Virus record (IMG/VR): IMGVR_UViG_3300044939_000362
Coordinates: 1 to 22,239 of that record
Length of the DNA: 22,239 nt
Reading direction: 5' to 3' (one strand)
From: a virus
Positions 1 through 17,282 of this stretch are shown piece by piece. The notes under the pieces were generated by a model. That model had not been told where the DNA came from. It saw nothing but the letters and a program-made list of their open reading frames with translations, and made no database searches. Each line of letters begins with the position of its first letter. Position 1 is the first letter of the stretch. The position numbers and the translations under genes were made by a program.

Positions 1-275
1 CAGAGAGAAGTATAAATGGCTCCAAGCGAGCCATACAACAGGAGTGCACCGAAGCTGCGAGCGAGCCTAGGAGGAGGAGTATAAGCAAGCGAGCCGTGTT
101 TACGAGTACACTGGGAACACGAGCGAGCCATCAGAGCAGAGTACATCAGCTGAATCTAGCGAGCCAGACAACGGGAGGGTACCGGAAGGAGCCAGCGAGC
201 CATACAGTGGAGCATGCCAGGAGCAGAAGCGAGCCAATCAGGAAGAGAGCACCAATGGTTAAGAGCGAGTCAGGG
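1..275. repeat. degenerate two-box tandem repeat array, about 35-base period
   Basis: The core GCGAGCC occurs at 26, 61, 89, 123, 159, 195 and 229, with a variant GCGAGTC at 265. Spacings are 35, 28, 34, 36, 36, 34 and 36 bases. In each of the seven full units a second box, roughly GGAGTRYACC, starts 15-16 bases after the first. A second-box-like segment at 7-19 with no first box before it implies that the array continues beyond the left edge. Spacings are not consistently multiples of three, so this is unlikely to be a protein repeat. The units are too degenerate and the cores too short for a normal CRISPR array. It could be an iteron-like replication site, a packaging or regulatory binding array, or the source of a structured RNA. 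The function is unknown. Confidence 0.7.
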
Positions 276-343
276 TTGTGAGTATCCCCCGTGAAGCAGC
301 GCTGTTTATGATAGCCATTTGGAAGAGTACGAGGATGAGATCG

Positions 344-1171
344 ATGAGCGAGACGAAGTGGACTAACCTGCAGTGGACGGCGAAGTGGGCTGTCCGCGAT
401 GGGCACCAGAGTATGTCGGAGGATTTGTATGTCTTGTGCGAGATGCGCCGGCGCGTGCAAACCGATCGCATTCGGACCAACAACCGAATTGAGGCGATCA
501 AGCGAGGCGACAGTCGAATGTCTGAGCAGATGCTGACATGGCTCCAGGAAGAGTACTCACACTACATGGCTATGGAGCATCGCCTGACAGAGCGCATCAG
601 GGTGGTGGCGAAGGACCATCCCATGATTGCCAGGATGTGTCGGGTACCCGGCGTGGGGCCCGTGCTGGCGGCTATGCTGTATTCGTTGCTGGACATCTAC
701 AAAGCCCCCCATATCTCATCATTCTGGAAGTACTGTGGTATGGGGGTCGCGCCGGATGGCAAGGCAGATAGACTACAGAGGGGGACGAAGGCCAACTTCA
801 ACAGGAAGGCCAAGCAGGCCTGCTACCTCATCGCCATGTCTATCCTCAAGGCGCATGGGCGTCGCGAGAATCCATACGGCGCGCTGTATTACAAGATGCG
901 CGACCAGTATTCCGAGACAAGGCCAGGCTGGACAGAGGCTCATGTTCACTACGCAGCGCTGAGATATATGATCAAGCGCTTCCTGGCACATCTCTGGCTG
1001 GTGTGGCGTGAGGAAGAGGGCTTGCAGGTGCACCCGCCCTACGTGCAGGCACGCCTCGGACACACCCACATTGACTCACCCGCCGAGTACGGTTGGTACG
1101 CTGATGGTGAGTATATTCCGCCTGAGGATGACCTCTATGACGACGCAGTTGGAGACATAGATGGGCTATGA
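344..1171 (+). CDS. IS110-type transposase C-terminal domain protein, stand-alone
   Basis: This 275-residue protein resembles the C-terminal half (Transposase_20 family) of IS110/IS116/IS902 transposases. Residues about 25-90 are charged and helical, like the IS110 linker. A helix-hairpin-helix-like RVPGVGPVLAAM (100-111) follows, then FWKYCGMGVAP (127-137) and a basic segment ending in KAKQACYLIAMSILKA (155-170). The N-terminal RuvC-like DEDD nuclease domain is absent, and the serine-glycine segment usual after the GLxP-like motif is not visible, so it is probably not an active transposase. The start at 344 is chosen for the GAGGA 8 bases upstream; a GTG at 278 in the same frame would add 22 residues. 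It lies just after the two-box repeat array. A DNA- or RNA-binding role is inference only. Confidence 0.7.
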   Translation: MSETKWTNLQWTAKWAVRDGHQSMSEDLYVLCEMRRRVQTDRIRTNNRIEAIKRGDSRMSEQMLTWLQEEYSHYMAMEHRLTERIRVVAKDHPMIARMCRVPGVGPVLAAMLYSLLDIYKAPHISSFWKYCGMGVAPDGKADRLQRGTKANFNRKAKQACYLIAMSILKAHGRRENPYGALYYKMRDQYSETRPGWTEAHVHYAALRYMIKRFLAHLWLVWREEEGLQVHPPYVQARLGHTHIDSPAEYGWYADGEYIPPEDDLYDDAVGDIDGL

Positions 1172-1181
1172 GGATTGTTGA

Positions 1182-1418
1182 ATGAAGACGTGGTGGGAGC
1201 GTGCAGAAGATAATGCATTTGGTATTGTGGCCTATCTTTGCTATAACTCCTCAATACGCATTGTGGGGGATGGTGTCAAGAGCCACGGGTCCTATGTGAT
1301 GCGCTTGCCTTATAGTCGCAGGTCGCTGCGCATGAGGTCGGCGCTGGGTGGAGACTTACCTGATTGGTGGGAAGATCGACAGGATCAAGAGGTCAACGAG
1401 GGAGTTTGCTGTGAATGA
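1182..1418 (+). CDS. hypothetical protein, 78 aa
   Basis: I do not recognise this small protein. It starts at ATG 1182 with GAGGA about 7 bases upstream, overlapping the stop of the previous gene, and its end overlaps the GTG start of the DUF4417 gene by 8 bases. Tight spacing on both sides and the ribosome binding site support translation. It is rich in Trp, Arg and charged residues, with no signal peptide, membrane segment or cysteine cluster that I can see. The C-terminal part (from about residue 55) is mostly charged. No function can be assigned. Confidence 0.5.
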   Translation: MKTWWERAEDNAFGIVAYLCYNSSIRIVGDGVKSHGSYVMRLPYSRRSLRMRSALGGDLPDWWEDRQDQEVNEGVCCE

Positions 1419-2034
1419 GTATCGGGTCGCCTCTCCGCAGTACTCTCGGGATGATGTGCCGGACGCCATCTGGCCATCCAACAATGAGTATGGTATACCT
1501 ACACTGCTTACTAACCTGCAGGCTGAGAATCTGATCACTCCCGTACATGCTTGGGGAGAAGTGGCGAGATCGAGGTCCATGCTCGGCACCTGGCACTTCT
1601 ACGTAGACGATTATCGCTTCCGCCGGGTGTGGGCGCGACCCTATGAAGTCCTCAACACCAGCTGCGCAGCCTGCGTGGAGGTCAATTGGACGGTAACAGC
1701 CGAGATGCCGCGCGCAGTGCGCCTATTCCGCATCTACCAAAAGCGTTGGCTGGCGCGCTTCTGGCAGACGAAGGGCGTGCGCATATGGGCCGATGCTTCC
1801 GTGCCGCTCAACTGCCTGGATGATGCCCTGCTCGGCATCCCCCCCGGGTGGAAGGCATTTGCGGTGGGGGGCACATCGGCTGATGCGGAATATGTGCAGG
1901 ATATTGTCACGGAGTTGCGCCAGCGCTACGGCAATCCGATGATATGGATCGTCGGGGGCAGCGAGTCGGTGAAGAGGGTGGCGCTGGGTGAGTCTTGCCT
2001 GTGGACACCGGCAAGAAGGAGGAGAATGGTATGA
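1411..2034 (+). CDS. DUF4417 domain protein
   Basis: This 207-residue protein matches the DUF4417 family, common in phages and mobile elements and of unknown biochemical function. Recognisable parts are NEYGIPTL (25-32), the conserved WHFYVDDYRFRRVW (61-74), the MPRAVRLFRIYQKRW segment (99-113) followed by FWQTKGV (117-123), and a GIPPGW turn before a hydrophobic strand. The GTG start at 1411 is preferred because GAGGGAG lies about 6 bases upstream and the overlap with the previous gene is then only 8 bases. A GTG at 1348 would add 21 residues but bury the start far inside the upstream gene. Family assignment is confident; role is unknown. Confidence 0.75.
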   Translation: MNEYRVASPQYSRDDVPDAIWPSNNEYGIPTLLTNLQAENLITPVHAWGEVARSRSMLGTWHFYVDDYRFRRVWARPYEVLNTSCAACVEVNWTVTAEMPRAVRLFRIYQKRWLARFWQTKGVRIWADASVPLNCLDDALLGIPPGWKAFAVGGTSADAEYVQDIVTELRQRYGNPMIWIVGGSESVKRVALGESCLWTPARRRRMV

Positions 2035-2463: not shown

Positions 2464-2697
2464 TCACCCGGTCACGCGCAGGTTGCACCAACCTGCGCGG
2501 ACGCACAGGTCAATAGTCAACTGTGAGCCGTCCCACATGTGGACGGTCCATCGTTCTACGGAGTCGCGACGGCCATCGTCCCGGATTCGGCCCCAACCCT
2601 GGACCCTGACCAGGCCTAGGGCGAGGAGCGCGCGTAGGAATGCTCGCTCCTCCCGCCCCGTTTGATCCATTGGATCAAACGGAACCAGCTCTTCCAT
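2464..2697 (-). CDS. hypothetical protein, 77 aa
   Basis: This is an unrecognised small protein and the last gene of the leftward operon. The ATG at 2697 is chosen because it gives a 23-base overlap with the Toprim gene; an earlier start at 2793 would overlap it by almost 120 bases. No clear ribosome binding site is visible, so coupling to the upstream gene is likely if it is translated. The N-terminal half is helical and rich in Leu and Arg; the C-terminal half carries alternating hydrophobic residues (VERWTVHMWDGSQLTIDLCV) suggesting beta strands. The terminator at 2423-2456 follows directly. Confidence 0.45.
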   Translation of the reverse strand: MEELVPFDPMDQTGREERAFLRALLALGLVRVQGWGRIRDDGRRDSVERWTVHMWDGSQLTIDLCVRAGWCNLRVTG

Positions 2698-3517
2698 ACG
2701 ATACACTCTGCAGCGCCTGGAGCATGCACCTCCGCCGTACTGGAAGCGCGTCCCAGGGGTAGGGCGCACTCGACGCTGTGTCGCCACGTGCACGGCGTCC
2801 GCTGCGCGCGCGATCGCGCGTTACAACTGCGATGTGCGTGCCGTTGTCGTCACCGTGCGCCCCGTGGCCTGTGTTGTGCGCTGTGTACTCGACGGGCAGT
2901 GCCTGGAGCGTGCGCAGGAATGCGCTGCGGTCAAACTGGATGTCACACCACAGCGCATTACAGTCGTAGCCGGTGCGGGTGTCCGGGAGCGCGCGTACGG
3001 CAAACTCGATGTCGCTTGCGCGCAGCCTCGTCGCCAGCTTCCGTGCTGCACGCTTTCCGGACGCATCGCGGTCGCGCACATAATACACCGTGCGCACGCC
3101 CCACCCGCGCAGGATCTCAGCGACGTTGTCGGGTATTCGCAACTCTGTGTAGAAGCACGCAACGTTGTACAGACCAAGGGTGAACAGCGTCCACACGTCC
3201 ACAAAGCCACCCACCACCCACAGCGTTGCCGGGCGCATGTGCGCGATCCAGTCGCCGTGGTAGAGCACGAGGTCGGTCGGGAGCGTGGGCATGATGTACT
3301 TTGGCTTTGCAGCGCTGTTTGCATTCTTCCAGATCCGCAGCAGCGCCAGTCCGCGCGCGGCCGCGACGGGGAATGCGCAACCCGGCGCGCCGCGGCGCGC
3401 TTCGTACACAATCTTAAAGTTGCGGATTGCCGAATCGGTGATTCCCCGACGGCGCAGCCAGTCGAGGCCGTCATCCGGACGATCATGGTCACTGTTACAC
3501 TTTGTGTATATACTCAT
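2675..3517 (-). CDS. Toprim/DnaG-like primase domain protein, possibly degenerate
   Basis: This 280-residue protein resembles the catalytic core of DnaG-type primases without the zinc-binding domain. Residues 18-80 include WLRRRGITDSAIRNF and a KPKYIMP segment typical of the region before Toprim. The Toprim part has LWVVGGFVDVWTLFTLG (99-115), where the usual catalytic Glu of the EG motif appears to be Gly 103, and YYVRDRDASGKRAA (145-158), which keeps the DxD metal-binding pair. The last 60 residues are low in complexity and rich in Arg, Gly and His. The start at 3517 is set by AAGGAG 6 bases upstream. It follows the cysH-like gene by 90 bases on the same strand. It may be a phage replication protein or an accessory of the CRISPR operon; loss of the Glu raises doubt about primase activity. 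Confidence 0.7.
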   Translation of the reverse strand: MSIYTKCNSDHDRPDDGLDWLRRRGITDSAIRNFKIVYEARRGAPGCAFPVAAARGLALLRIWKNANSAAKPKYIMPTLPTDLVLYHGDWIAHMRPATLWVVGGFVDVWTLFTLGLYNVACFYTELRIPDNVAEILRGWGVRTVYYVRDRDASGKRAARKLATRLRASDIEFAVRALPDTRTGYDCNALWCDIQFDRSAFLRTLQALPVEYTAHNTGHGAHGDDNGTHIAVVTRDRARSGRRARGDTASSAPYPWDALPVRRRCMLQALQSVSYGRAGSV

Positions 3518-3607
3518 GATGTGCTCCTTCGCGGGTGCACCCCTTGCGCCCACCACATCTCAACAAAGCCATGCCCATGCCAGCGGGCACTGCTTGTTAC
3601 ACTGGCG

Positions 3608-4357
3608 TTAAAAATTTGCAACAACGGGGTTATCGGTGACGAAGGCGTTCCATAACTCCGGCCACAGGTGGCGGGTGGTCTCCAATAAGCCATACTGGTA
3701 GACGCGCACCGCCGTGAGTGGCCCAATGCGAGCGCGCTCGATGGGCATGCCCGCGTTGATCATCTGCGCGTAGGCGGGATGAATGGGGAGCTCATTCCCC
3801 ACGAGATAGGCGAAGACCTCTGGCGCGCTCCAATCGTGCAGCGGGGAGCAGTGCCAAAGCCCGTCCTGCGTCTTGCGCAGCGGTTTGCGCAGCGCGAAGC
3901 GTCGCCCTGTGCTCTCTTCTGCCCGTAACCCCATCGCAACCCCGTCGAATCCATAGTGCCCCACAATCTCGCCCCACGTGTCGGCCTCAAAGTCTACTGG
4001 GCGCGGATTGGAACACGTCGGCCAAGTGCCAAACTCGGCAAAGAATTCATCTGCGCTGCGGCGCTCTCGGACGCGCAAAATGTGGATGCCATAATGCTTC
4101 TCTGTGGCCTCCACCACCTCCAGCGTCCCAGGCGGCAGCCAGTCCTCATCATGGAAGACAACTTGGACCTCTGGACGTATGCGTAGCACAATGTCCACAA
4201 GACACTGGCTGTCTTTACCACCACTGTAGGCGACATAGGGGCGCTCCGTGCGGCGCAACAATGCGCGGACGAGGCGCTGTGCGCTGTTGACTCGGGCGCG
4301 CATTGGGGGCAGGCGCCAATGGAGCTTAGACATGGCCATTAAGGTATCGTAGTCCAT
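3608..4357 (-). CDS. cysH-like: CysH-like PAPS reductase-family PP-loop protein of type IV-B operon
   Basis: This 249-residue protein belongs to the PP-loop ATP pyrophosphatase / phosphoadenosine phosphosulfate reductase family. The PP-loop is AYSGGKDSQ (43-51), followed by VVFHDEDW, GLRAEES (about 163-169) and PLHDWSAPEVFAYL, the conserved PLxDW segment. The C-terminal ECGLH catalytic motif of true assimilatory PAPS reductases is absent, so sulfate reduction is unlikely; nucleotide-dependent modification of RNA or another substrate is possible but unproven. The start is one base after the csf3 stop (TGAGATG), so it is translationally coupled. A cysH-like gene is the characteristic accessory of type IV-B loci. 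Phages also carry unrelated PAPS-reductase-like genes, but this context favours the CRISPR link. Confidence 0.85.
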   Translation of the reverse strand: MDYDTLMAMSKLHWRLPPMRARVNSAQRLVRALLRRTERPYVAYSGGKDSQCLVDIVLRIRPEVQVVFHDEDWLPPGTLEVVEATEKHYGIHILRVRERRSADEFFAEFGTWPTCSNPRPVDFEADTWGEIVGHYGFDGVAMGLRAEESTGRRFALRKPLRKTQDGLWHCSPLHDWSAPEVFAYLVGNELPIHPAYAQMINAGMPIERARIGPLTAVRVYQYGLLETTRHLWPELWNAFVTDNPVVANF

Positions 4358-4358
4358 C

Positions 4359-5018
4359 TCACCGCTCCGGTAGCGCCAGCGTCCTCAGGTTTGCCCTGCC
4401 CCAATAGGGTGGTCGGATGCCATACATCCCCGTCGGCGCGCTTGGCGCTTCTGGAACTGGAACCCCACGCACGAGGCGCCCCCCCAACCACACCGAAGCG
4501 TCTTCCTCTATCGGCGTAATCTCCCATCGGATGACCCGCCCCCAGCCCTGCGTCGCTTTTTTTCCAATATGCGTCACGGTGCTGAGGAGGTACGCGATGG
4601 CGTCGAAGTCACCAACACAGTACCAGTCCAACCAAAGTGCGGCACGATAGTAGATCAGTGTATGGTATGACTTATAGCGACCCTTCCCCGTCTCGATCTT
4701 CCCCCGCCGACCCTGGAAGTCTACCAGATACTCGAGGGGCGTATCGAAGCGTTTGTTCCAATACTCTTTGGCGTGCACCGTGTGCTTCGGCCAGATGGCC
4801 CAGGAACACTTGTAGTACCAATCCGGCGTACCCTCATTGGCGACGGCCAACGGAAGCGTAATGTCCGCGCTTCCGTCGTACTCAGGCGGCGTGACCACCT
4901 GCACACCCAGCTGGTCGCGATGCGCTTGGTACAGCAGAATGCCGTCGAGCGGCATGTAACCGTCACTTACCACACCGCTGCGTAGGTATGCACGCACATG
5001 CAGGTTATTTAAAACCAT
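4359..5018 (-). CDS. csf3: Csf3, type IV Cas5-like RAMP subunit
   Basis: This 219-residue protein fits Csf3, the Cas5-type RAMP that caps the 5' end of the guide RNA in type IV complexes. Early residues LHVRAYLRSGVVSDGYMPLDGILL (6-29) form the expected first strand and loop of a ferredoxin-like fold. Residues 109-135 contain GKGRYKSY and a hydrophobic strand. The glycine-rich loop HIGKKATQGWGRV (150-162) is the RAMP signature near the second fold. The gene overlaps the csf2 end by 14 bases. Cas5 in type I systems can process RNA, but nothing here shows catalytic residues. Length and position between csf2 and the cysH-like gene agree with type IV-B. Confidence 0.85.
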   Translation of the reverse strand: MVLNNLHVRAYLRSGVVSDGYMPLDGILLYQAHRDQLGVQVVTPPEYDGSADITLPLAVANEGTPDWYYKCSWAIWPKHTVHAKEYWNKRFDTPLEYLVDFQGRRGKIETGKGRYKSYHTLIYYRAALWLDWYCVGDFDAIAYLLSTVTHIGKKATQGWGRVIRWEITPIEEDASVWLGGRLVRGVPVPEAPSAPTGMYGIRPPYWGRANLRTLALPER

Positions 5019-5982
5019 CGAGCAGCTCCCGAATCTCTTTGCTGTGCTTCTGGAGGTGGCGTATATACTGGTTGCCGAGTGGCAGCTGCAGCTCTCGTCC
5101 TTCCGGCGCTAGGCGTGGGTTGATCTCGATCCAGCGGTCGAAGTGGATCGCCACCTTCCCGTGCCCTACTGCGCTCTTGCCGCCGATATGTGGCGCTTTG
5201 CTGAATTCCACCAATGTGACACAGAATGCCTCAAATTCCAATGGCGTCACATCCTCCAACACGATGTCCCAATAGAAGCGCGTGCCGGCGGCCAGCGTCT
5301 CGACGTAATAGCGCATCTGTTGCTTCTGTCCGGTCTCGCCCGCAGGCGCGTTTGGGTCATCGAGCAGCAGTTGACGCTGCCTGGCGGCGCTCGCTTCCAG
5401 TAATGCCCGCTCGTTTGGGTCAATCAAAGCGCGTAGCGTCTCATTTTTCTCATCGTCGCGTCGGGTGTACGCTTCCACTTGACATAGATCCCAAATGCTG
5501 CAGCATTCCGCATGATATCTGTCTGGAATCAAATGCAAGGTCTCGGCGCAGAGGGGGATGAACTTGCCGACGCGCAGCTTCCCTGGCATGATTTGATTCC
5601 CCATCGCCCCCCCAAACACGGACACCAGCGGGATAAGCTCGCGCCAGCGACGGGCTTCGTCAAGGTCCAGCCCGCGCGATCCCGTCTTCGTCAATGCGCC
5701 ACCGGAGAAGAGGAAGTAGAAGGCGGCGAGGGGGAGGCCAAACACCTCTCCCGTCTCCTCATTCACCCCATACCCCAACGTCCTCAGCATGTGCAACATC
5801 CCCCGATCGCGAAGAATGCCGCGAATGCTGTTTCCGGAGATGATGGGAATCTCTTCGACGGTACCGTCGGGGAGGACAATGCGCTCACGGCGAAGTCTGG
5901 CGTTTACTCCCCCCGTCTCGCCAATCTGTGAGATAGATGTGAGCGCTGTCGCCATACCTTCAAAAACGTAGGTCTGCATCAT
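5005..5982 (-). CDS. csf2: Csf2, type IV Cas7 backbone subunit
   Basis: This 325-residue protein is a clear Csf2/Cas7. The N-terminus has ATALTSISQIGETGGVNARLRRE (11-33), then IISGNSIRGILRDRGMLHML (48-67), the conserved Cas7 strand-loop-helix that contacts RNA, and a glycine-rich FLFSGGAL turn. Near the C-terminus PHIGGKSAVGHGKV forms the RAMP glycine-rich loop. In type IV complexes several Csf2 copies line up along the guide RNA. The start codon is preceded by GAGGAGG and overlaps the cas11 stop by 4 bases (a second ATG follows immediately). Of the operon's genes this is the most securely identified, and it fixes the type IV assignment. Confidence 0.93.
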   Translation of the reverse strand: MMQTYVFEGMATALTSISQIGETGGVNARLRRERIVLPDGTVEEIPIISGNSIRGILRDRGMLHMLRTLGYGVNEETGEVFGLPLAAFYFLFSGGALTKTGSRGLDLDEARRWRELIPLVSVFGGAMGNQIMPGKLRVGKFIPLCAETLHLIPDRYHAECCSIWDLCQVEAYTRRDDEKNETLRALIDPNERALLEASAARQRQLLLDDPNAPAGETGQKQQMRYYVETLAAGTRFYWDIVLEDVTPLEFEAFCVTLVEFSKAPHIGGKSAVGHGKVAIHFDRWIEINPRLAPEGRELQLPLGNQYIRHLQKHSKEIRELLDGFK

Positions 5983-6341
5983 TCCGCCTCCTCAAACTCT
6001 CGGTAGGTTGCGTACTTCTCCTGAAGCGCAACGCGCACCATCAGCACAACGAGCGACGTCTCATTGCGTATAAGATTAAGTAACTCATGATCGTGACCTG
6101 CATTGAGTATCTTCACGCAATCGGCACGCTCTTCCTTGGTCATGCCCATCTGCGCGTTCAGCCTATCACAAAGCTTAGTGACGAATTTACCGAGATTATT
6201 TGTATATGTGCTGCTCTTCACCTCATCTTCGAATTGTCTCCAGATGGTCTGGCGGTAGCGCGCCTTATATGTCGAATCCATGCCCCGCCATATCGCGGTC
6301 AACAGTGTCACCGCTTGTGCTCTCAAATGATCAGTCTCCAT
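5979..6341 (-). CDS. cas11: Cas11-like small subunit of type IV-B complex
   Basis: This 120-residue protein is predicted to be all-helical, with no cysteine cluster or membrane segment. It has heptad-like hydrophobic spacing, basic helices (YKARYRQTIWRQFEDEVKSS) and a hydrophobic NETSLVVLMVRVALQEKY helix near the end. Size, helical nature and position between csf1 and csf2 fit the Cas11 small subunit of type IV-B, which bridges Cas7 subunits along the belly of the complex. The sequence alone is not diagnostic because Cas11 proteins diverge rapidly; the call depends mainly on the operon. It overlaps csf1 by 11 bases and csf2 by 4. Confidence 0.78.
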   Translation of the reverse strand: METDHLRAQAVTLLTAIWRGMDSTYKARYRQTIWRQFEDEVKSSTYTNNLGKFVTKLCDRLNAQMGMTKEERADCVKILNAGHDHELLNLIRNETSLVVLMVRVALQEKYATYREFEEAE

Positions 6342-6957
6342 TCTCGTCGCTCCTTTGGGCTAAGAATAAGGCGAGGTCAAAGAGGGGTTGGCCTCGCCAT
6401 TGGGATGCGGTGGCTTCGAGACGCATGAAGCGCTCGATACCGAATTGTTGAATGCTGCGCATCGCATAATGTCCAGTCGCTATCTCTGACTTTGTGAATA
6501 CCTGGTATAGCGCATCCACGACATCAAGCTTTGCGGCCAATTGTTTTGGTTCTACGAAGATGGGCGCCTCTTCAAACTGTACCCACCCTGCAGCAGCGTC
6601 TTCGTCGTTCCACCGCGCACGGAAGACGAGGTGCTTCTGGCCACTCACGGCAATGACGGCGAGCTTTGGGAATGGCACACCCAGGAGTATCTGTCGCATT
6701 CGCCACTTCTCCGCTTTGCTGAGTGGGATCCATTCGCCCGCTACGATGAAGTGGCTGTAGTTGCGCATGCGTTGGGGTTTGTCTAGGCCTAAGCGTTGTT
6801 GAAGCTCCACACTGGCCTCGTCCAACCAGAAGAGACAAGCGTCGCACACCACCGAGCCTGGGTATAACTTGTCATGATTCGTGAAGGTGTCCCGTACCCA
6901 TGCATCGAATGGCGTGCCATCGTCTACGCTTAGGCCACAGAAGCGGCACCTGTTCAT
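6331..6957 (-). CDS. csf1: Csf1, type IV Cas8-like large subunit with zinc finger
   Basis: This 208-residue protein matches Csf1, the signature large-subunit-like protein of type IV. A Cys4 zinc-binding module is formed by C4, C7, C38 and C41 (CRFC and CDAC). A helical region follows, then LLGVPFPKLAVIAVSGQKHLVF, the strongly conserved Csf1 stretch around SGQKH, and a C-terminal helical region (YAMRSIQQFGIERFMRLE). The ATG at 6957 is chosen because it places the CxxC next to the start as in relatives; a longer frame up to 7089 would run into the terminase gene. It is the first gene of the operon. No convincing ribosome binding site is seen, so it may be weakly translated or nearly leaderless. 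Confidence 0.88.
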   Translation of the reverse strand: MNRCRFCGLSVDDGTPFDAWVRDTFTNHDKLYPGSVVCDACLFWLDEASVELQQRLGLDKPQRMRNYSHFIVAGEWIPLSKAEKWRMRQILLGVPFPKLAVIAVSGQKHLVFRARWNDEDAAAGWVQFEEAPIFVEPKQLAAKLDVVDALYQVFTKSEIATGHYAMRSIQQFGIERFMRLEATASQWRGQPLFDLALFLAQRSDENGD

Positions 6958-7030
6958 GTTGTCGCGATCTGGTATATTAGTCTTCGTGTAGTATACTGCA
7001 ACTAGCCGGCACAAGCGAGGAAGGATTTGC
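6958..7030. promoter_or_regulatory. divergent control region between csf1 and terS
   Basis: These 73 bases separate the leftward CRISPR operon from the rightward terminase operon, so at least the leftward promoter should lie here. On the minus strand TTGCAG, 16 bases and TAATAT precede csf1 as a weak sigma70-like candidate. TATACT at 6992-6997 could serve the plus strand but has no matching -35 box. A good ribosome binding site, AGGAAGGA (7018-7025), precedes the small terminase ATG at 7031. Promoter placement is tentative. Confidence 0.35.
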
Positions 7031-7537
7031 ATGAAGTTTAACGATCCACGGGTGCAGCAGACGTTGTTGGACTGCATCGCATATGGCATGACGGTGCAGG
7101 ATAGCTGTGCTGCAGCTGGCGTATCGAAGAGGGCATATTACCATTGGCTCGGACAGGCTAGGGATGCCCTGCGCCGCCAGGCGGAGGGTGAAGACCTGTC
7201 AGAGTCTGACAAGCAGTACATCGAATTCTTGGAAGCCGTGAAGCAGGCTCGTGCGCTAAAGATTAGGAACCTGCTAAAGCAAATCGAGGAGCACGGACAG
7301 CGATCTTGGCAGGCGCTGGCCTGGATACTGGAGCGCACCGAGCCGGCCATGTTTGCCCAACGACGTGAGGTCACCAACTGGGAGGCCACCAGAACCGCGC
7401 TGATACGCATGGGGCTCACGCCGGAGGATGCAGAGCAGATTGTATCGGACATTGTCCGTCAATTCACCGAGGTGGCGGTGCGGGCAAAGCGCAAAGAAGT
7501 CTACGCGCTGCCGCCTGGCGAGGATGATGATGACTGA
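7031..7537 (+). CDS. terS: terminase small subunit
   Basis: This 168-residue protein recognises phage DNA for packaging and recruits the large terminase. The N-terminal third holds a helix-turn-helix: a helix around ALLDCIAYG-like residues 10-18, then VQDSCAAAGVSKRAYYHWLGQARD (22-45), the typical terminase small subunit DNA-binding motif. A helical middle (KQYIEFLEAVKQARALKIRN) is likely the oligomerisation region, and the C-terminus ends in acidic residues. Start ATG 7031 follows AGGAAGGA by 5 bases. It overlaps the large terminase gene by a few bases. It is the first gene of the late operon. Confidence 0.88.
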   Translation: MKFNDPRVQQTLLDCIAYGMTVQDSCAAAGVSKRAYYHWLGQARDALRRQAEGEDLSESDKQYIEFLEAVKQARALKIRNLLKQIEEHGQRSWQALAWILERTEPAMFAQRREVTNWEATRTALIRMGLTPEDAEQIVSDIVRQFTEVAVRAKRKEVYALPPGEDDDD

Positions 7538-9053
7538 TTATCCCCCTATCACGATACCCGATAGCATCGTCCAGGCGCTCATGCAGGAGGCTATTGTGCG
7601 TGCCGAGCGAGCGCTGCAGGTCCGTGCTGTTGACCTGTGGAAGCCCAACCCAGGTCCTCAGTCTGATGCATACTACAGCGAGGCTGACGAGTTATTCTTT
7701 GGCGGCGCGGCTGGGGGTGGCAAGACCAGCTTATTGTTAGGGCTGGCGATGACTGCGCACAAACGTTCCATCATCTTCAGGCGAGAATACTCACAAATGC
7801 GCGAGTTGGAAGACCAGTCAAGACGAATACTGGCTGGCACTAGAGCATCATACAATGGCCAGATGCATATCTGGCGTGATGTACCTGGCGGACGGGTGAT
7901 CGAGTTTGGTTCAGTACCCTATGACCATGATGTCCAGCGCTATCAAGGGCGCCCGCACGACCTCGTTGGCTTCGATGAGATTACGCACTTTACCGAGGAG
8001 CAGTACAGATTCCTGATTGCTTGGAATCGCTCGGAGGATCCCAACCAGCGGGTGCGGGTGGTAGCAACCGGCAACCCGCCGTCCTCACAAAGTGGAGAGT
8101 GGGTGATACGCTACTGGGCGCCTTGGCTCCATCCACACCACCCCAATCCGGCCAGGCCGGGCGAGCTACGCTACTTCGCCGTCATCGATGGCAAGGATGT
8201 CGAGGTGGATAGCGGCGAGCCATTCATGCACAACGGTGAGCTTGTCGTGCCCAGATCTCGCACTTTCATTCCGGCGCGCCTGGAGGACAACCCGCACCTA
8301 GCACAGACGAACTATCGAGCCGTGTTGCAGTCCCTGCAGGAGCCACTACGCAGCCAGCTTCTGTACGGGGACTTCAAGCTGACCATCCAGGATGATGAGT
8401 GGCAGGTCATACCGACCGAGTGGGTGCGTGTGGCTCAGGAACGTTGGCGCAAGCTGGGTAAGCCGGATAATCAGCCAATGCGCGCCTTGGGTGTGGATGT
8501 GGCGCGGGGCGGATCGCATAATACCGTACTGGCGCCTCTGTGGGGCGAGTACTTTGGCGAGTTAGTTATCATTCCCGGATACAAGACAAAGGATGGCGCA
8601 GCCACAGCGGCGTATGTCTATAAGCATCTCAAGGACGAGGCAGTGGTCTATATAGACGTCATTGGTGCCGGCTCGTCAGCGTATGATGTACTGAAGGAGC
8701 AGCTGGGTAGGCGAGTGGTGGGGGTTAATGCGGCGGGGAGAAGTAGGGGTAGATCAGCCGATGGCCACTTCCCCTTCCACAACATGCGCGCGCAAATGTA
8801 CTGGCGACTGCGCGAGGCGCTCGATCCCACCAGTGGAATTGCACTCGCTCTACCTCCTGACCACGACCTGCTAGCCGACTTGACTACGCCCCGGTACAGC
8901 GTGACCGCACGTGGCATACTGATAGAGAGCAAGCAGCAGGTAGCCGATAGGCTGGGGCGCTCGCCTGACAAAGGGGATGCAGTGGCTCTGGCGTGGTGTT
9001 GTGCACATACCAAGGCCAAGGTTGGCCGCGTGTTCTCGTCACCGATATACTGA
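7530..9053 (+). CDS. terL: terminase large subunit
   Basis: This 507-residue protein is the packaging motor ATPase and headful or cos nuclease. The Walker A motif is GGAAGGGKTS (58-67), Walker B with the catalytic Glu is DLVGFDE (144-150), and VVATGNPP is the coupling motif. The C-terminal RNase H-like nuclease keeps acidic residues in ALGVDVARGG, VVYIDVIGAG and SPDKGDAVALAW, the usual metal-binding triad. Three in-frame ATGs occur at 7524, 7527 and 7530; 7530 has the best distance from GGCGAGG (7517-7523). It overlaps terS by 8 bases, suggesting coupled translation. Confidence 0.95.
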   Translation: MTDYPPITIPDSIVQALMQEAIVRAERALQVRAVDLWKPNPGPQSDAYYSEADELFFGGAAGGGKTSLLLGLAMTAHKRSIIFRREYSQMRELEDQSRRILAGTRASYNGQMHIWRDVPGGRVIEFGSVPYDHDVQRYQGRPHDLVGFDEITHFTEEQYRFLIAWNRSEDPNQRVRVVATGNPPSSQSGEWVIRYWAPWLHPHHPNPARPGELRYFAVIDGKDVEVDSGEPFMHNGELVVPRSRTFIPARLEDNPHLAQTNYRAVLQSLQEPLRSQLLYGDFKLTIQDDEWQVIPTEWVRVAQERWRKLGKPDNQPMRALGVDVARGGSHNTVLAPLWGEYFGELVIIPGYKTKDGAATAAYVYKHLKDEAVVYIDVIGAGSSAYDVLKEQLGRRVVGVNAAGRSRGRSADGHFPFHNMRAQMYWRLREALDPTSGIALALPPDHDLLADLTTPRYSVTARGILIESKQQVADRLGRSPDKGDAVALAWCCAHTKAKVGRVFSSPIY

Positions 9054-13898: not shown

Positions 13899-15083
13899 AT
13901 GAAGATATTGTGGCATAGTAACGGTCCCAACGTGCCCAGCGGTTACGGGGTACAGACTAAAATTTTTTGCAAACTTCTGGTAGAGGACGGTCACGATGTC
14001 ATTGTGTCTTGCAATTGCGGCTTACAGGGTATCCCGATGCGCTGGGAGGGCATGCTGATCCTACCCAGCACAGTAGATGAGGTGGGCAACGACAGCCTAA
14101 TAGCACATTATCTCGATAACTCTCCTGATGTCCTCCTCATCCTGTATGACGCGTGGCCATTCAATCCGGATGTGATCTCCCAGATACCCGTATCGCTGTG
14201 GGCCCCAATTGATCATCGCGAGGTACCGCCGCAGGTCGCCGACATCTTGCGGCTGGCGCGTCACCCAATCGCCATGAGCCGTCATGGTGAGCGGGCCATG
14301 CGCGCTGCAGGGGGCATTGACCCATTCTACGTTCCTCACGCTGTAGATACCGAGATCTATAAGCCGATAGACAGGCAGGAGGCTCGCAAGCGACTGGATG
14401 TTGGGAGCAACACATTCTTCGTCGTGGTCAACGGAGCCAACAAGGGTAATCGCAAGTCGCTGGAGCTCATCATTAAAGCATGGTCGATTTTTACAGAGCG
14501 CTACCATTACGATGGTATGCTTCTGTATATGCATTGTTATGCCGAGGCTACACACGGTATAGATTTACTGGCATGTGCTAAGTATTATGAGGTAGACCCC
14601 AAGACAATACGGTTTGCGAACTCATATCATTATGTTATGGGGCGCTTCTCCCCCCGCATTATGTGTGACCTGTATAACGCCGCTGACGTACTGCTACAAC
14701 CCTCGCGGGGTGAGGGTTTCGGCGTACCGCTCATTGAAGCGCAGGCGTGTGGTACCCCCGTCATCACCTGCGACGCTACGGCGATGAGTGAGCTCGTTGG
14801 GCCGGGGTATCTCATCGCTATAGATGCCATTGACGACTACATCTACACGCCAATGGGAGATGAGCAGGCCGAGCCGCCAGTGTCCCGGATTGTAGATGGC
14901 CTGGAGTGGGCGTATGCCCATAAAGGTAGCGAGCAATTGCGGTACAAAGCGCGTGCCTTCGCTATGGAATACGATAGCCAGTACGTATATAGCAAATACA
15001 TGAAGCCGGCACTGGAGTGGATGGCCGAGGTCAACAGGTCGGCAACTGGTACCGACGCAGTGATAGAGCATTATCCACAATGA
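13899..15083 (+). CDS. glycosyltransferase, GT4-like (GT-B fold)
   Basis: This 394-residue protein transfers a sugar from a nucleotide donor and resembles family GT4. The N-terminal Rossmann-like half begins MKILWHSNGPNVPSGYGVQ with the glycine-containing acceptor loop. The C-terminal donor-binding half has FFVVVNGANKGNRKSLEL (173-190), where the basic residues contact phosphate, and the E-x7-E motif E272-E280 in EGFGVPLIE, followed by ACGTPVIT. No signal peptide or membrane segment is visible, so it should act in the cytoplasm. It opens a four-gene cassette coupled by short overlaps. The acceptor could be a virion protein, DNA or a host glycan; none can be chosen from sequence. Confidence 0.85.
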   Translation: MKILWHSNGPNVPSGYGVQTKIFCKLLVEDGHDVIVSCNCGLQGIPMRWEGMLILPSTVDEVGNDSLIAHYLDNSPDVLLILYDAWPFNPDVISQIPVSLWAPIDHREVPPQVADILRLARHPIAMSRHGERAMRAAGGIDPFYVPHAVDTEIYKPIDRQEARKRLDVGSNTFFVVVNGANKGNRKSLELIIKAWSIFTERYHYDGMLLYMHCYAEATHGIDLLACAKYYEVDPKTIRFANSYHYVMGRFSPRIMCDLYNAADVLLQPSRGEGFGVPLIEAQACGTPVITCDATAMSELVGPGYLIAIDAIDDYIYTPMGDEQAEPPVSRIVDGLEWAYAHKGSEQLRYKARAFAMEYDSQYVYSKYMKPALEWMAEVNRSATGTDAVIEHYPQ

Positions 15084-15766: not shown

Positions 15767-16668
15767 AGATCGCCGTCTTCTCGGATACACGACTACCCAC
15801 CTCGCACGACTATGGCGGTCACGGCTTGGGCCACTCTGTGTTGCAATTGGCGGAAGGGTTGGCCGACAGGGGGCACGATGTCACACTCTTTGCGGGCCCT
15901 GGCTCCTCTACCGAGTTGCGACTCATTGTCCGGGGCAGCGAGGATGACTTTGTGCCGTATGTGGAGCGCTTTGATGCAGTGCTGGACTCCGGTCACAATC
16001 ACCAAGCATCCAAGATTTATCCAGATGCTCCTATCGTTAATCGCTGTGCCGACATCGAGACTGACCCTGGCCCTAACGCCATATTCTTGTCAGAGTCTGA
16101 TAGGAGACACTTCCGGAGACATACCAACACCGGCAGGGTCATACATACGGGCATAAAGGCCCCGGCACATCGCATGACGAGAGACAAGCATCCTTACGTC
16201 ACCTATATGGGTGGATTCTGGGCCGGGAAGCAGGTTGTCATATGTATTGAGGCTGCGAGACTGGCCGGGGTCAAGATCAAGCTGGCAGGCCCCCCTTTAC
16301 CCAGCGCGCCGATAAGTTACAAGCATGTCGAGTATGTGGGGCCGGTGTATGGAGACGCTAAGTGGAACTTCTTGATGCGGTCATCCGTGCATCTTGTGCC
16401 TATTGGCATCAGATCGGCACTCGAGGCCCAGTCATGTGGCACACCGGTACTGACCACGCCGTACCGAGGTATGCCGGAGTACATTGCGCCCGGTACGTCT
16501 GGGTACATTGTGAGAGACATTATCGAGATGGCCGAGCACATCGGGTTGGCGATGCAGTTAGATCCTGAGAATGTGTACAGGTACATCGTGGATAATCACT
16601 CGTTTGAGAGAATGCTAGATCTGTATGAGGCGGCACTCATGGACGTTGTCCAGGGAATGAGATGGTAG
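15763..16668 (+). CDS. glycosyltransferase, GT4-like
   Basis: This 301-residue GT-B protein starts in a 4-base overlap with the upstream stop. The N-terminal part has MKIAVFSDTRLPTSHDYGGHGLGHSV with the glycine-rich acceptor loop, and LAEGLADRGHDVTLFAGPG, a typical GT4 first helix and strand. The donor half has YVTYMGGFWAGKQ (145-157) and SALEAQSCGTPVLTTPYRGMPEYI, containing the second Glu of the E-x7-E motif (E221). The first Glu appears to be replaced (Pro 213 by position), which may change donor handling. It is shorter than most GT4 enzymes (usually about 350-400 residues). It overlaps the methyltransferase gene by 7 bases. Confidence 0.82.
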   Translation: MKIAVFSDTRLPTSHDYGGHGLGHSVLQLAEGLADRGHDVTLFAGPGSSTELRLIVRGSEDDFVPYVERFDAVLDSGHNHQASKIYPDAPIVNRCADIETDPGPNAIFLSESDRRHFRRHTNTGRVIHTGIKAPAHRMTRDKHPYVTYMGGFWAGKQVVICIEAARLAGVKIKLAGPPLPSAPISYKHVEYVGPVYGDAKWNFLMRSSVHLVPIGIRSALEAQSCGTPVLTTPYRGMPEYIAPGTSGYIVRDIIEMAEHIGLAMQLDPENVYRYIVDNHSFERMLDLYEAALMDVVQGMRW

Positions 16669-17282
16669 ATTGGCGCGACGAGGCGTTGGTTGCGCTCAAT
16701 ACACAGGAGGCTCTTGATAAATTCTGGGCGCGCAAGAGCGTAAGAGATGGATACTTCACACCAATGCGCCTGTCATATTATGACAGAGTGGCGTCCTACC
16801 TTGAATTGAGCATTGATGATATGGACGACCCGATTAAAGTGTGCGATGTGGGATGTGGCCCAGGGTACATGCTAGCGGCGCTCAGTAGGCACTACCCTGA
16901 GCGCCACTTTGTTCTACACGGCGTAGACTGGTCACGGTCTGCCATCCGCTGGGCCAGGGAGGTGTGCCCGGATGCGACGTATCATGTTGCAAATATTACA
17001 CATGGCTTAGATATACACGACGTGGACATTGTCTTGTCCCTGCAGACGTTGGAGTATATTGTCGAATGGCGACAGGCTTTGGACAACATGATGGCGATGC
17101 TCCGACGAGGTGGAGAGTTAGTAATCACTGTGCCTGATGGCCGATATGACAGCTGGGAAGGCCATGTTAATAGGTGGACGGCAGATGACTTATTAACACT
17201 GCTCAAACCATACGGTTGCCGGCTGGTCTGGCAATTCACATCCACACAACCTATGATCCTGGCTCACATGATTAAGGTGTAG
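16662..17282 (+). CDS. SAM-dependent class I methyltransferase
   Basis: This 206-residue protein carries the seven-strand Rossmann methyltransferase signatures: motif I VCDVGCGPGYML (60-71) for SAM binding, acidic motif II GVDWS (87-91), an IVLSLQTLEYI motif IV-like segment, and GGELVITVPDG after it. The family includes UbiE/SmtA-type small-molecule methyltransferases. As the last gene of the cassette it probably methylates the sugar made or attached by the glycosyltransferases, but DNA or protein targets are not excluded. No target-recognition domain of a DNA methylase is present. The start overlaps the upstream stop. Confidence 0.85.
   Translation: MVDWRDEALVALNTQEALDKFWARKSVRDGYFTPMRLSYYDRVASYLELSIDDMDDPIKVCDVGCGPGYMLAALSRHYPERHFVLHGVDWSRSAIRWAREVCPDATYHVANITHGLDIHDVDIVLSLQTLEYIVEWRQALDNMMAMLRRGGELVITVPDGRYDSWEGHVNRWTADDLLTLLKPYGCRLVWQFTSTQPMILAHMIKV

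What the first reader, a model, noticed from the sequence alone, without database searches (positions are those of the whole stretch)
3608..6957. Type IV-B CRISPR-Cas operon carried by a tailed phage
The gene set csf1, cas11, csf2, csf3 and cysH-like is intact, tightly coupled and placed between phage replication-type and packaging genes. Type IV-B is mostly plasmid-borne and its function is unresolved, so a phage copy divergent from the terminase genes may point to a role in phage-phage or phage-plasmid competition, or in binding host small RNAs. Gene identity is from family motifs; the role is inference.
Basis: partly seen in the sequence, partly recalled or inferred. Interest (0 to 1): 0.9.

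Follow-up and report, generated by a model that had tools for sequence, protein, structure and literature searches.

The report
Phage type IV-B operon, swappable CysH
A tailed phage carries a complete but nuclease-free CRISPR-like protein complex (type IV-B), and comparison with relatives shows that phages keep the RNA-binding core together while repeatedly swapping its enzyme partner, which hints at what this unexplained system does.

Summary
Window 3608-6957 (minus strand) encodes csf1-cas11-csf2-csf3-cysH, the canonical type IV-B set, in a contig with terminase, portal, capsid and tail genes; no CRISPR array was found. IV-B on an archaeal virus and type IV on phages are in print, so this is a new member of a known kind. 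An alignment scan found 56 further viral contigs with a Csf2 relative; the window falls in a clade of viral contigs plus one MAG contig. Isolated phage Skermania SPI1 carries the same five genes, annotated 'hypothetical'.

What looks new is how the parts evolve. Csf3 and Csf2 trees agree (0 of 14 supported Csf3 splits conflict), but 13 of 18 supported CysH splits conflict with Csf2. In two phage pairs DNA homology covers csf1-csf3 and stops before cysH. Four contigs without a PAPS-reductase domain hold another gene in the slot: radical-SAM (two), RNA-methyltransferase-like (one), unidentified (one). I favour an RNA-binding core with an exchangeable enzyme that activates or modifies a substrate, used in conflict with host or rivals. 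Genes, exchange and purifying selection are shown; biochemistry and role are inference. The window also carries a TIGR-like array with a Tas-like gene.

The parts
6331..6957 (-). csf1 (Cas8-like large subunit), 208 aa, N-terminal CxxC...CxxC
   Evidence: PADLOC typeIV_Cas8 2.9e-26; TIGR03114 9e-6, under cut-off; translation. The ORF runs upstream to 7089, but that start would overlap terS.
5979..6341 (-). cas11 (small subunit), 120 aa
   Evidence: PADLOC typeIV_Cas11 5.6e-26
5005..5982 (-). csf2 (Cas7-like backbone), 325 aa
   Evidence: PADLOC typeIV_Cas7 9e-79; PDB 7jhy Csf2 1.5e-28
4359..5018 (-). csf3 (Cas5-like), 219 aa
   Evidence: PADLOC typeIV_Cas5 5e-48; TIGR03116 2e-21, under cut-off
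3608..4357 (-). cysH-like protein of ATP-pyrophosphatase fold, 249 aa; PP motif SGGKDS at residues 45-50; no cysteine in the last 70 residues
   Evidence: PF01507 4e-20; AlphaFold2 pLDDT 91; best structures APS/PAPS reductases, FAD synthase PAPS domain, ATP sulfurylase small subunit; residue census
6958..7030 (.). 73-b divergent intergenic stretch between csf1 and terS
   Evidence: sequence; no consensus promoter called here
2675..3556 (-). TOPRIM/primase-like gene downstream of cysH on the same strand; possibly co-transcribed, but no homologue in the related loci checked
   Evidence: Toprim_3 2.6e-5, under cut-off; phrog_47 4e-8; no phmmer match at 1e-4 in L002-L022
2423..2456 (-). terminator-like hairpin (15 pairs, then a T run), possible end of the csf1...toprim transcript
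   Evidence: pattern match only
7031..7537 (+). terminase small subunit
   Evidence: phrog_4102 5.7e-24
7428..9053 (+). terminase large subunit (ORF; start not settled)
   Evidence: phrog_979 8e-43
24..272 (+). TIGR-like array: GCGAGCC/T edge-like repeats at 28-36 b spacing (separate system)
278..1171 (+). Tas-like (IS110/Nop-related) protein next to the array
   Evidence: phrog_4285 5e-42; Transposase_20 9e-4, under cut-off

Best explanation
The operon makes a type IV-B complex: Csf2 and Cas11 form an RNA-coating double filament with Csf3 and Csf1, with no nuclease and no CRISPR array seen in the contig. It works with a separate, exchangeable enzyme, here a CysH-like ATP-pyrophosphatase without the reductase cysteine. 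The RNP binds short RNA (own, host or scavenged) and the enzyme then activates or modifies a substrate, most likely the bound or recognised nucleic acid, or a metabolite signal; the phage uses this against host defences or rival elements. Shown here: gene identities, operon order, phage setting, purifying selection in relatives, co-inheritance of Csf2 with Csf3, exchange of CysH, its replacement by other genes in four contigs. From the literature: filament architecture and RNA binding of a plasmid IV-B complex. Inferred: that the enzyme acts on nucleic acid, that the RNP directs it, and the counter-defence or competition role.
For: Five profile-identified genes in canonical order. In 17 related operons (16 viral, one MAG contig; 135 pairs, one near-identical pair left out) mean protein identity is Csf2 66%, Csf3 49, Csf1 48, Cas11 44, CysH 34; rank correlation with Csf2 0.72-0.79 for the core, 0.44 for CysH. 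Supported splits that conflict with supported Csf2 splits in 38 operons: Csf3 0 of 14, Csf1 4 of 15, Cas11 4 of 10, CysH 13 of 18. L007/L011: DNA 81.6% identical to the end of csf3, CysH 37% in protein; L005/L009: 73.4% through csf3 into a small HTH gene, CysH 34%; AU tests reject sister CysHs, p 6.7e-5 and 1.0e-6. PF01507 somewhere in 45 of 56 IV-B viral records against 1 of 34 control records, Fisher 6e-14. Four contigs without PF01507 carry another gene in the slot: B12-type radical SAM in L012 and L063, RNA-methyltransferase-like in L050, unidentified in L082. In 42 aligned CysHs S45, G47 and S50 are invariant, K48 is kept in 40 and D49 in 41; no CxxC or ECG C-terminal of residue 180 in 42 of 42. 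dN/dS 0.04-0.26 in the 22 of 25 gene comparisons (five pairs) where it could be computed.
Against: No biochemistry. PAPS-reductase-fold enzymes also act on small molecules (best structural matches: sulfur assimilation and FAD synthesis), so a nucleic-acid substrate is a guess. The replacements are four contigs only, one unidentified; the radical-SAM matches are to families of mixed substrates. Exchange fits any host-facing accessory protein, not only a modifying enzyme. Csf1 and Cas11 trees also show some conflict (4 each), and the trees are quick ones. Some relatives have Cas6-family genes or array-like repeats, which fits ordinary guide-directed interference.
Confidence: 0.4

Rival explanations
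1. RNA sponge: the Csf filament soaks up host guide RNAs (crRNAs or other small RNAs) without sequence choice and so blunts RNA-guided host defence; CysH is a helper of unknown kind.
For: The Mycobacterium IV-B complex assembles on heterogeneous, mostly non-crRNA (PMC7937560, passages) and the sponge idea is discussed there and in PMC8175902 (passages). No CRISPR array in the window. Phage carriage fits counter-defence.
Against: Gives no reason for CysH in 45 of 56 records, nor for its exchange and replacement. Some relatives have Cas6-family genes or arrays.
Confidence: 0.2
2. Guide-directed, nuclease-free interference as in type IV-A, with crRNAs made by the host or by an array elsewhere in the phage, silencing rival phages or plasmids.
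For: Cas6-family genes inside the operon in L066, L070, L071 and L077 and by eye in L068; array-like repeats in L059 (37-nt repeats) and L074, and a two-copy repeat in L056; mini-array in Fuxivirus (PMC10848311, passages).
Against: No array in the window; the repeat scan of the stretches held flagged arrays in only a few relatives, though whole records were not scanned and Cas6 was not sought in all. It does not explain CysH.
Confidence: 0.2
3. RNA-bound signalling: the RNP senses a viral or host RNA and switches on CysH (or its substitute), which makes a small nucleotide signal or adenylates a protein, like the exchangeable ancillary effectors of type III systems (that comparison is recalled).
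For: Exchangeable accessory next to a type III-like core; the CysH profile also matches the ATP-pyrophosphatases TtuA (3e-5) and Cap9 (5e-5).
Against: No sensor or effector pair seen; the Cap9 match is weak and its role in defence is recalled, not tested.
Confidence: 0.12
4. Passenger or decaying cargo without a function in the phage.
For: csf2 is cut short in L018, L019 and L087.
Against: dN/dS 0.04-0.26 in relatives; the gene set is kept in otherwise different phage contigs.
Confidence: 0.05

Closest known systems
Type IV-B CRISPR-Cas of actinobacterial plasmids (Mycobacterium JS623 complex, PDB 7jhy; Rhodococcus and other plasmids)
   Same: csf1, cas11, csf2, csf3, often a cysH-like gene; no array reported as typical
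   Different: Csf2 of the 40 listed plasmid hits (of 71) is 30-37% identical; the six actinobacterial plasmids sampled lie in another branch of the Csf2 tree; here the setting is a tailed phage
Type IV-B of the archaeal virus family Fuxiviridae (PMC10848311)
   Same: virus-borne IV-B with CysH next to Csf3
   Different: that locus has a mini-array; the host is an archaeon; its sequence was not compared here
Skermania phage SPI1 genes 40-44 (KR011061)
   Same: same five genes in the same order in an isolated tailed phage
   Different: Csf2 39% identical; groups beside the actinobacterial plasmids
TIGR-Tas systems (PMC12045711)
   Same: the left end of the window has dual-repeat-like units and a Tas-like gene
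   Different: a separate system from IV-B; the window array is irregular and Tas was not modelled

Membership tests
Type IV-B CRISPR-Cas | csf2 (type IV Cas7) present | tested here: met
   PADLOC 9e-79; PDB 7jhy 1.5e-28
Type IV-B CRISPR-Cas | csf3 (Cas5) and csf1 (Cas8-like) present | tested here: met
   5e-48 and 2.9e-26; NCBIfam scores under curated cut-offs
Type IV-B CRISPR-Cas | cas11 small subunit (absent from IV-A) | tested here: met
   5.6e-26
Type IV-B CRISPR-Cas | cysH-like ancillary gene without the reductase cysteine | tested here: met
   PF01507 4e-20; no Cys in the last 70 residues
Type IV-B CRISPR-Cas | no DinG helicase and no Cas10-like HD subunit (separates it from IV-A and IV-C) | tested here: inconclusive
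   none in the operon, but neither was sought by its own profile, not every window ORF was scanned, and the record is a fragment
Type IV-B CRISPR-Cas | no CRISPR array or adaptation genes | tested here: inconclusive
   no array in the window; cas1/cas2 were not sought by profile; the record is a fragment
[quoted passage not shown]
   needs purification
TIGR-Tas (left end of the window) | alternating 8-12-nt edge and loop repeats, about 9-nt spacers, 36-nt units | tested here: inconclusive
   clear in L014, 10 units at 36 b; in the window edge repeats at 28-36 b spacing with degenerate loop repeats
TIGR-Tas (left end of the window) | Nop-domain Tas protein | tested here: inconclusive
   phrog_4285 5e-42 and Transposase_20 9e-4, under cut-off; no structure predicted

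The most novel reading that the evidence does not exclude
Type IV-B is not an interference system but an RNA-guided nucleic-acid modification machine with a plug-in catalytic subunit: phages keep a fixed RNA-binding core and swap the enzyme (CysH-type ATP-pyrophosphatase, B12 radical-SAM, RNA-methyltransferase-like, possibly others) to fit the host or the opponent, a viral analogue of RNA-guided modification by box C/D snoRNPs.
Probability: 0.22. Interest if true: 0.9.

Novelty: new member of a known kind. Interest (0 to 1): 0.66.

Why it matters
What type IV-B systems do, and why cysH goes with them, is stated as open in PMC7937560, PMC8175902 and PMC11656645 (passages). The comparison here narrows it: Csf2 and Csf3 are inherited together and the enzyme slot is what changes, in a few contigs to a different kind of gene. 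That predicts a catalytic, host- or opponent-facing role for the slot protein. It also gives a tractable model: SPI1, an isolated phage with all five genes, annotated as hypothetical proteins.

Tried and rejected
Host: not settled. The only two near relatives found by pattern in bacterial and archaeal genomes are 8-9 kb contigs of Chloroflexota MAGs; one of them (L022) shares five gene clusters with viral contig L018, so it is probably a phage contig. In 400 genomes of that phylum 2 matched Csf2, one being the seed and one weak, 5.6e-4. The nearest TerL relatives in the phage collection infect other phyla, at 50% identity or less.

TOPRIM gene as part of the system: rejected for now, no homologue in the loci L002-L022.

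Link between TIGR-Tas and IV-B: Tas-like gene in 4 of 57 records (window; 2 of 18; 1 of 38) against 0 of 34 control records; Fisher 0.29, so not shown. The control was 34 of the 80 loci, those on contigs of 20 kb or more, and nothing rang in that search, its 14 named genomes included. tigRNA target search over the loci held: 31 near matches against 42 for shuffled spacers, no signal. A search for close viral relatives of the window's Tas-like protein found none.

Slot protein of L082: a DSGAF motif recalls tRNA-guanine transglycosylases by eye (recalled), but Pfam, PHROGs, NCBIfam and PDB gave nothing convincing and the model is poor, pLDDT 46, so it was not searched; left as unidentified. A weak TssR_M match (0.03) was discounted. 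No other viral contig with it was found.

L093, a viral contig with a radical-SAM relative of L063, has no csf gene in the 6 kb held. The radical-SAM of L012 was found in no other viral contig.

Rows left out: five partial Csf2s from the Csf2 tree (L018, L019, L022, L087, L088). In one search the script named L017, L067, L069 (near-duplicates), L084 (long branch) and L072, L081, L086, L089 (which lacked a gene anyway). The CysH tree used 35 rows of those found, the residue census 42.

Not in print: 'type IV-B' with 'radical SAM' gave one paper, whose type IV-B passage concerns phage PAPS reductases; titles and abstract openings listed (20 of 35 shown; 10 of 14 shown) mention no CysH exchange. 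Only open-licence PMC papers were searched; Pinilla-Redondo 2020, Moya-Beltran 2021 and Al-Shayeb 2022 are not held.
Full report
OBSERVATION. Five ORFs on the minus strand at 3608-6957 encode Csf1, Cas11, Csf2, Csf3 and a CysH-like protein in the canonical IV-B order. Scores against PADLOC models are strong (9e-79 to 2.9e-26); the three NCBIfam Csf models match under their curated cut-offs. Neighbouring genes overlap or lie one base apart. csf1 is divergent from the terminase small-subunit gene across 73 b. The plus strand to the right carries terminase, portal, head-morphogenesis, capsid, connector, tail and tape-measure genes. A TOPRIM/primase-like gene follows cysH on the same strand, and a terminator-like hairpin lies at 2456-2423. 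No CRISPR array, tRNA or Rfam family was found. The record is a linear fragment of 22,239 b.

RELATIVES. A scan of viral contigs with the single Csf2 found 18 loci at 54-74% identity; a scan with an alignment of Csf2s found 56, including those 18 and a few near-duplicates. A TerL match (phrog_2) is present in 12 of 18 and 16 of 38 of these records; a portal match in 9 of 18 (not run on the 38). So 15 of the first 18 have one or the other and the remaining three are contigs of 12.4 kb or less; for 22 of the 38 the viral label rests on IMG/VR. Among the first loci few genes outside the operon are shared, so the operon sits in different phage backgrounds. In L063 the surrounding genes include an integrase and a single-strand annealing protein. 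The phage collection holds one match, Skermania phage SPI1, whose genes 40-44 are csf1, cas11, csf2, csf3 and cysH. The plasmid collection holds 71 records, all under 60% identity. In the Csf2 tree of 63 rows the window falls in a 24-row clade (SH-aLRT 99) made of the window, 22 viral contigs and one Chloroflexota MAG contig; the six actinobacterial plasmids sampled group with SPI1 and two viral contigs (98); the Rhodovastum and Thermococcus plasmids lie elsewhere among viral contigs. Only eight plasmid records were used and support is SH-aLRT alone.

THE ENZYME SLOT. Within 17 related operons mean pairwise identity is 66% for Csf2 and 34% for CysH, with the other subunits between. Rate alone cannot explain this. 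L007 and L011 share csf2 at 89% and csf3 at 90% but cysH at 37%; their DNA homology (81.6%) runs to the end of csf3 and stops before cysH (the L007 contig begins inside csf1, so the other border is unseen). L005 and L009 share csf2 at 82% and csf3 at 75% but cysH at 34%; their homology (73.4%) covers csf1-csf3 and part of a small HTH gene, with one further 30-b match just before cysH, and stops there. AU tests reject each pair as CysH sisters (p 6.7e-5 and 1.0e-6). Across 38 operons with all five genes, conflict with supported Csf2 splits is 0 of 14 for Csf3, 4 of 15 for Csf1, 4 of 10 for Cas11 and 13 of 18 for CysH, which contradicts 14 of 18 supported Csf2 splits (quick trees, support of at least 90). 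For five close pairs, dN/dS is 0.04-0.26 in the 22 of 25 comparisons that were not saturated, so the operon is under purifying selection in relatives.

ABSENCE AND REPLACEMENT OF CYSH. A PAPS-reductase domain occurs somewhere in 45 of 56 records (15 of 18; 30 of 38), against 1 of 34 control phage contigs; it lies within about 650 b of a csf gene except in L086, where it is 2.5 kb away. Some records have a second, separate PAPS-reductase gene. Of the 11 without the domain, three have a shortened csf2 (L018, L019, L087), four end at or inside the operon (L064, L072, L088, L089), and four hold another gene in the slot. In L012 a B12-type radical-SAM gene starts two bases after csf3. In L063 a related radical-SAM protein (23% identity over 348 columns, E 1e-10) follows csf3. 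In L050 an RNA-methyltransferase-like gene (RrnaAD 3e-6, over cut-off) lies between csf2 and csf3, where its tree neighbours L015, L048, L052 and L053 have cysH. In L082 an unidentified protein lies between csf2 and csf3, where its tree neighbours L079 and L080 have cysH. The L012 and L082 records have a TerL match; L050 and L063 do not, and the L050 flanks gave only PHROGs of unknown function.

CYSH ITSELF. The AlphaFold2 model of the window protein from 42 CysHs is confident (pLDDT 91). Its best structural matches are APS/PAPS reductases (Z 14.7-17.2), the PAPS domain of FAD synthase (16.9) and the ATP sulfurylase subunit 1zun_A (16.0), then FMN adenylyltransferases (about 14) and tRNA-thiolation TtuA (about 12) (Foldseek). 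The PP motif is nearly invariant and no CxxC or ECG follows residue 180 in 42 of 42. L011 carries, apart from its Cas-type CysH, a second CysH with a CVLCP motif. This agrees with the published view of CasCysH as an ATP alpha-hydrolase without reductase chemistry (PMC8175902, passages). The fold does not tell the substrate.

GUIDES. The window has no CRISPR array. Relatives vary: Cas6-family genes sit in the operon of L066, L070, L071 and L077, 37-nt repeats at 72-75 b spacing lie downstream of the operon in L059 and 29-30-nt repeats at 61 b in L074, with a two-copy repeat in L056 (script of mine, no array caller, stretches held only). So some viral IV-B loci have the means to make or use crRNA, as reported for Fuxivirus (PMC10848311, passages).

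MECHANISM. I read the system as a conserved RNA-binding core plus an exchangeable enzyme. The identified replacements point to group-transfer chemistry, in one case with RNA-modifying relatives, which makes modification or activation of a nucleic acid my preferred guess; signalling or protein adenylation remain possible. The comparison with exchangeable type III ancillary effectors is from recall; that with box C/D snoRNPs is my analogy. A role in infection (counter-defence or competition) is inferred from phage carriage alone.

STATUS AGAINST WHAT IS KNOWN. Type IV-B on a virus is known; the window is a new, divergent member in a mainly viral clade. I found no description of CysH exchange or of radical-SAM or methyltransferase genes in the slot in the searches made, but three key papers on type IV are not in the library. 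Papers: passages only of PMC10848311, PMC8175902, PMC7937560, PMC11437467, PMC12669027 and PMC11656645; for PMC12045711 the outline, passages and section 6; others as search listings.

Noticed in passing
window 24-1171 (+): TIGR-like array (GCGAGCC-type repeats at 28-36 b; the motif with up to one mismatch occurs 20 times in the window against 8.2 expected) directly before an IS110/Nop-related Tas-like gene. With IV-B this makes two RNA-guided-type systems in one phage contig.
   Followed up: partly
L014 1178-1545 and 1559-2410: Regular TIGR array: ten 36-nt units (TGCGAGCCA, 9 nt, TGAAACCCA, 9 nt) upstream of a Tas-like gene, on a contig that also carries the IV-B operon. In the phage collection one of 50,697 records matched this Tas-like protein.
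   Followed up: partly
L059 2332-3640 and 10196-10790: Tas-like gene and TIGR-like units (by eye) upstream of csf1, and 37-nt CRISPR-like repeats downstream: three RNA-guide elements in one viral contig.
   Followed up: partly
L012 11639-13129; L063 7712-9253; L050 4167-4649; L082 6723-7394: Radical-SAM (two), RNA-methyltransferase-like (one) and unidentified (one) genes in the cysH slot of IV-B operons.
   Followed up: partly
L066 7862-8497, L070 6975-7622, L071 6969-7574, L077 6972-7511: Cas6-family genes within viral IV-B operons.
   Followed up: partly
L003 11587-12189, L005 11654-11974, L006 about 3031-3590, L008 5906-6502, L009 5854-6222: Small genes with weak HTH or sigma-like matches between csf3 and cysH in several phages; L006 by eye, L009 by similarity to L005.
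   Followed up: partly
L072 4620-9128: A second csf1 and csf3 directly after the first csf1-cas11-csf2-csf3.
   Followed up: no
window 13899-15083 and 16662-17282 (+): A glycosyltransferase-like and a methyltransferase-like gene between capsid and connector genes, perhaps for virion or DNA decoration; the two ORFs between them were not scanned.
   Followed up: no
window 1348-2034 (+): DUF4417 protein (PF14386 2.6e-24; phrog_940 'nuclease' 2.7e-29) near the Tas-like gene.
   Followed up: no
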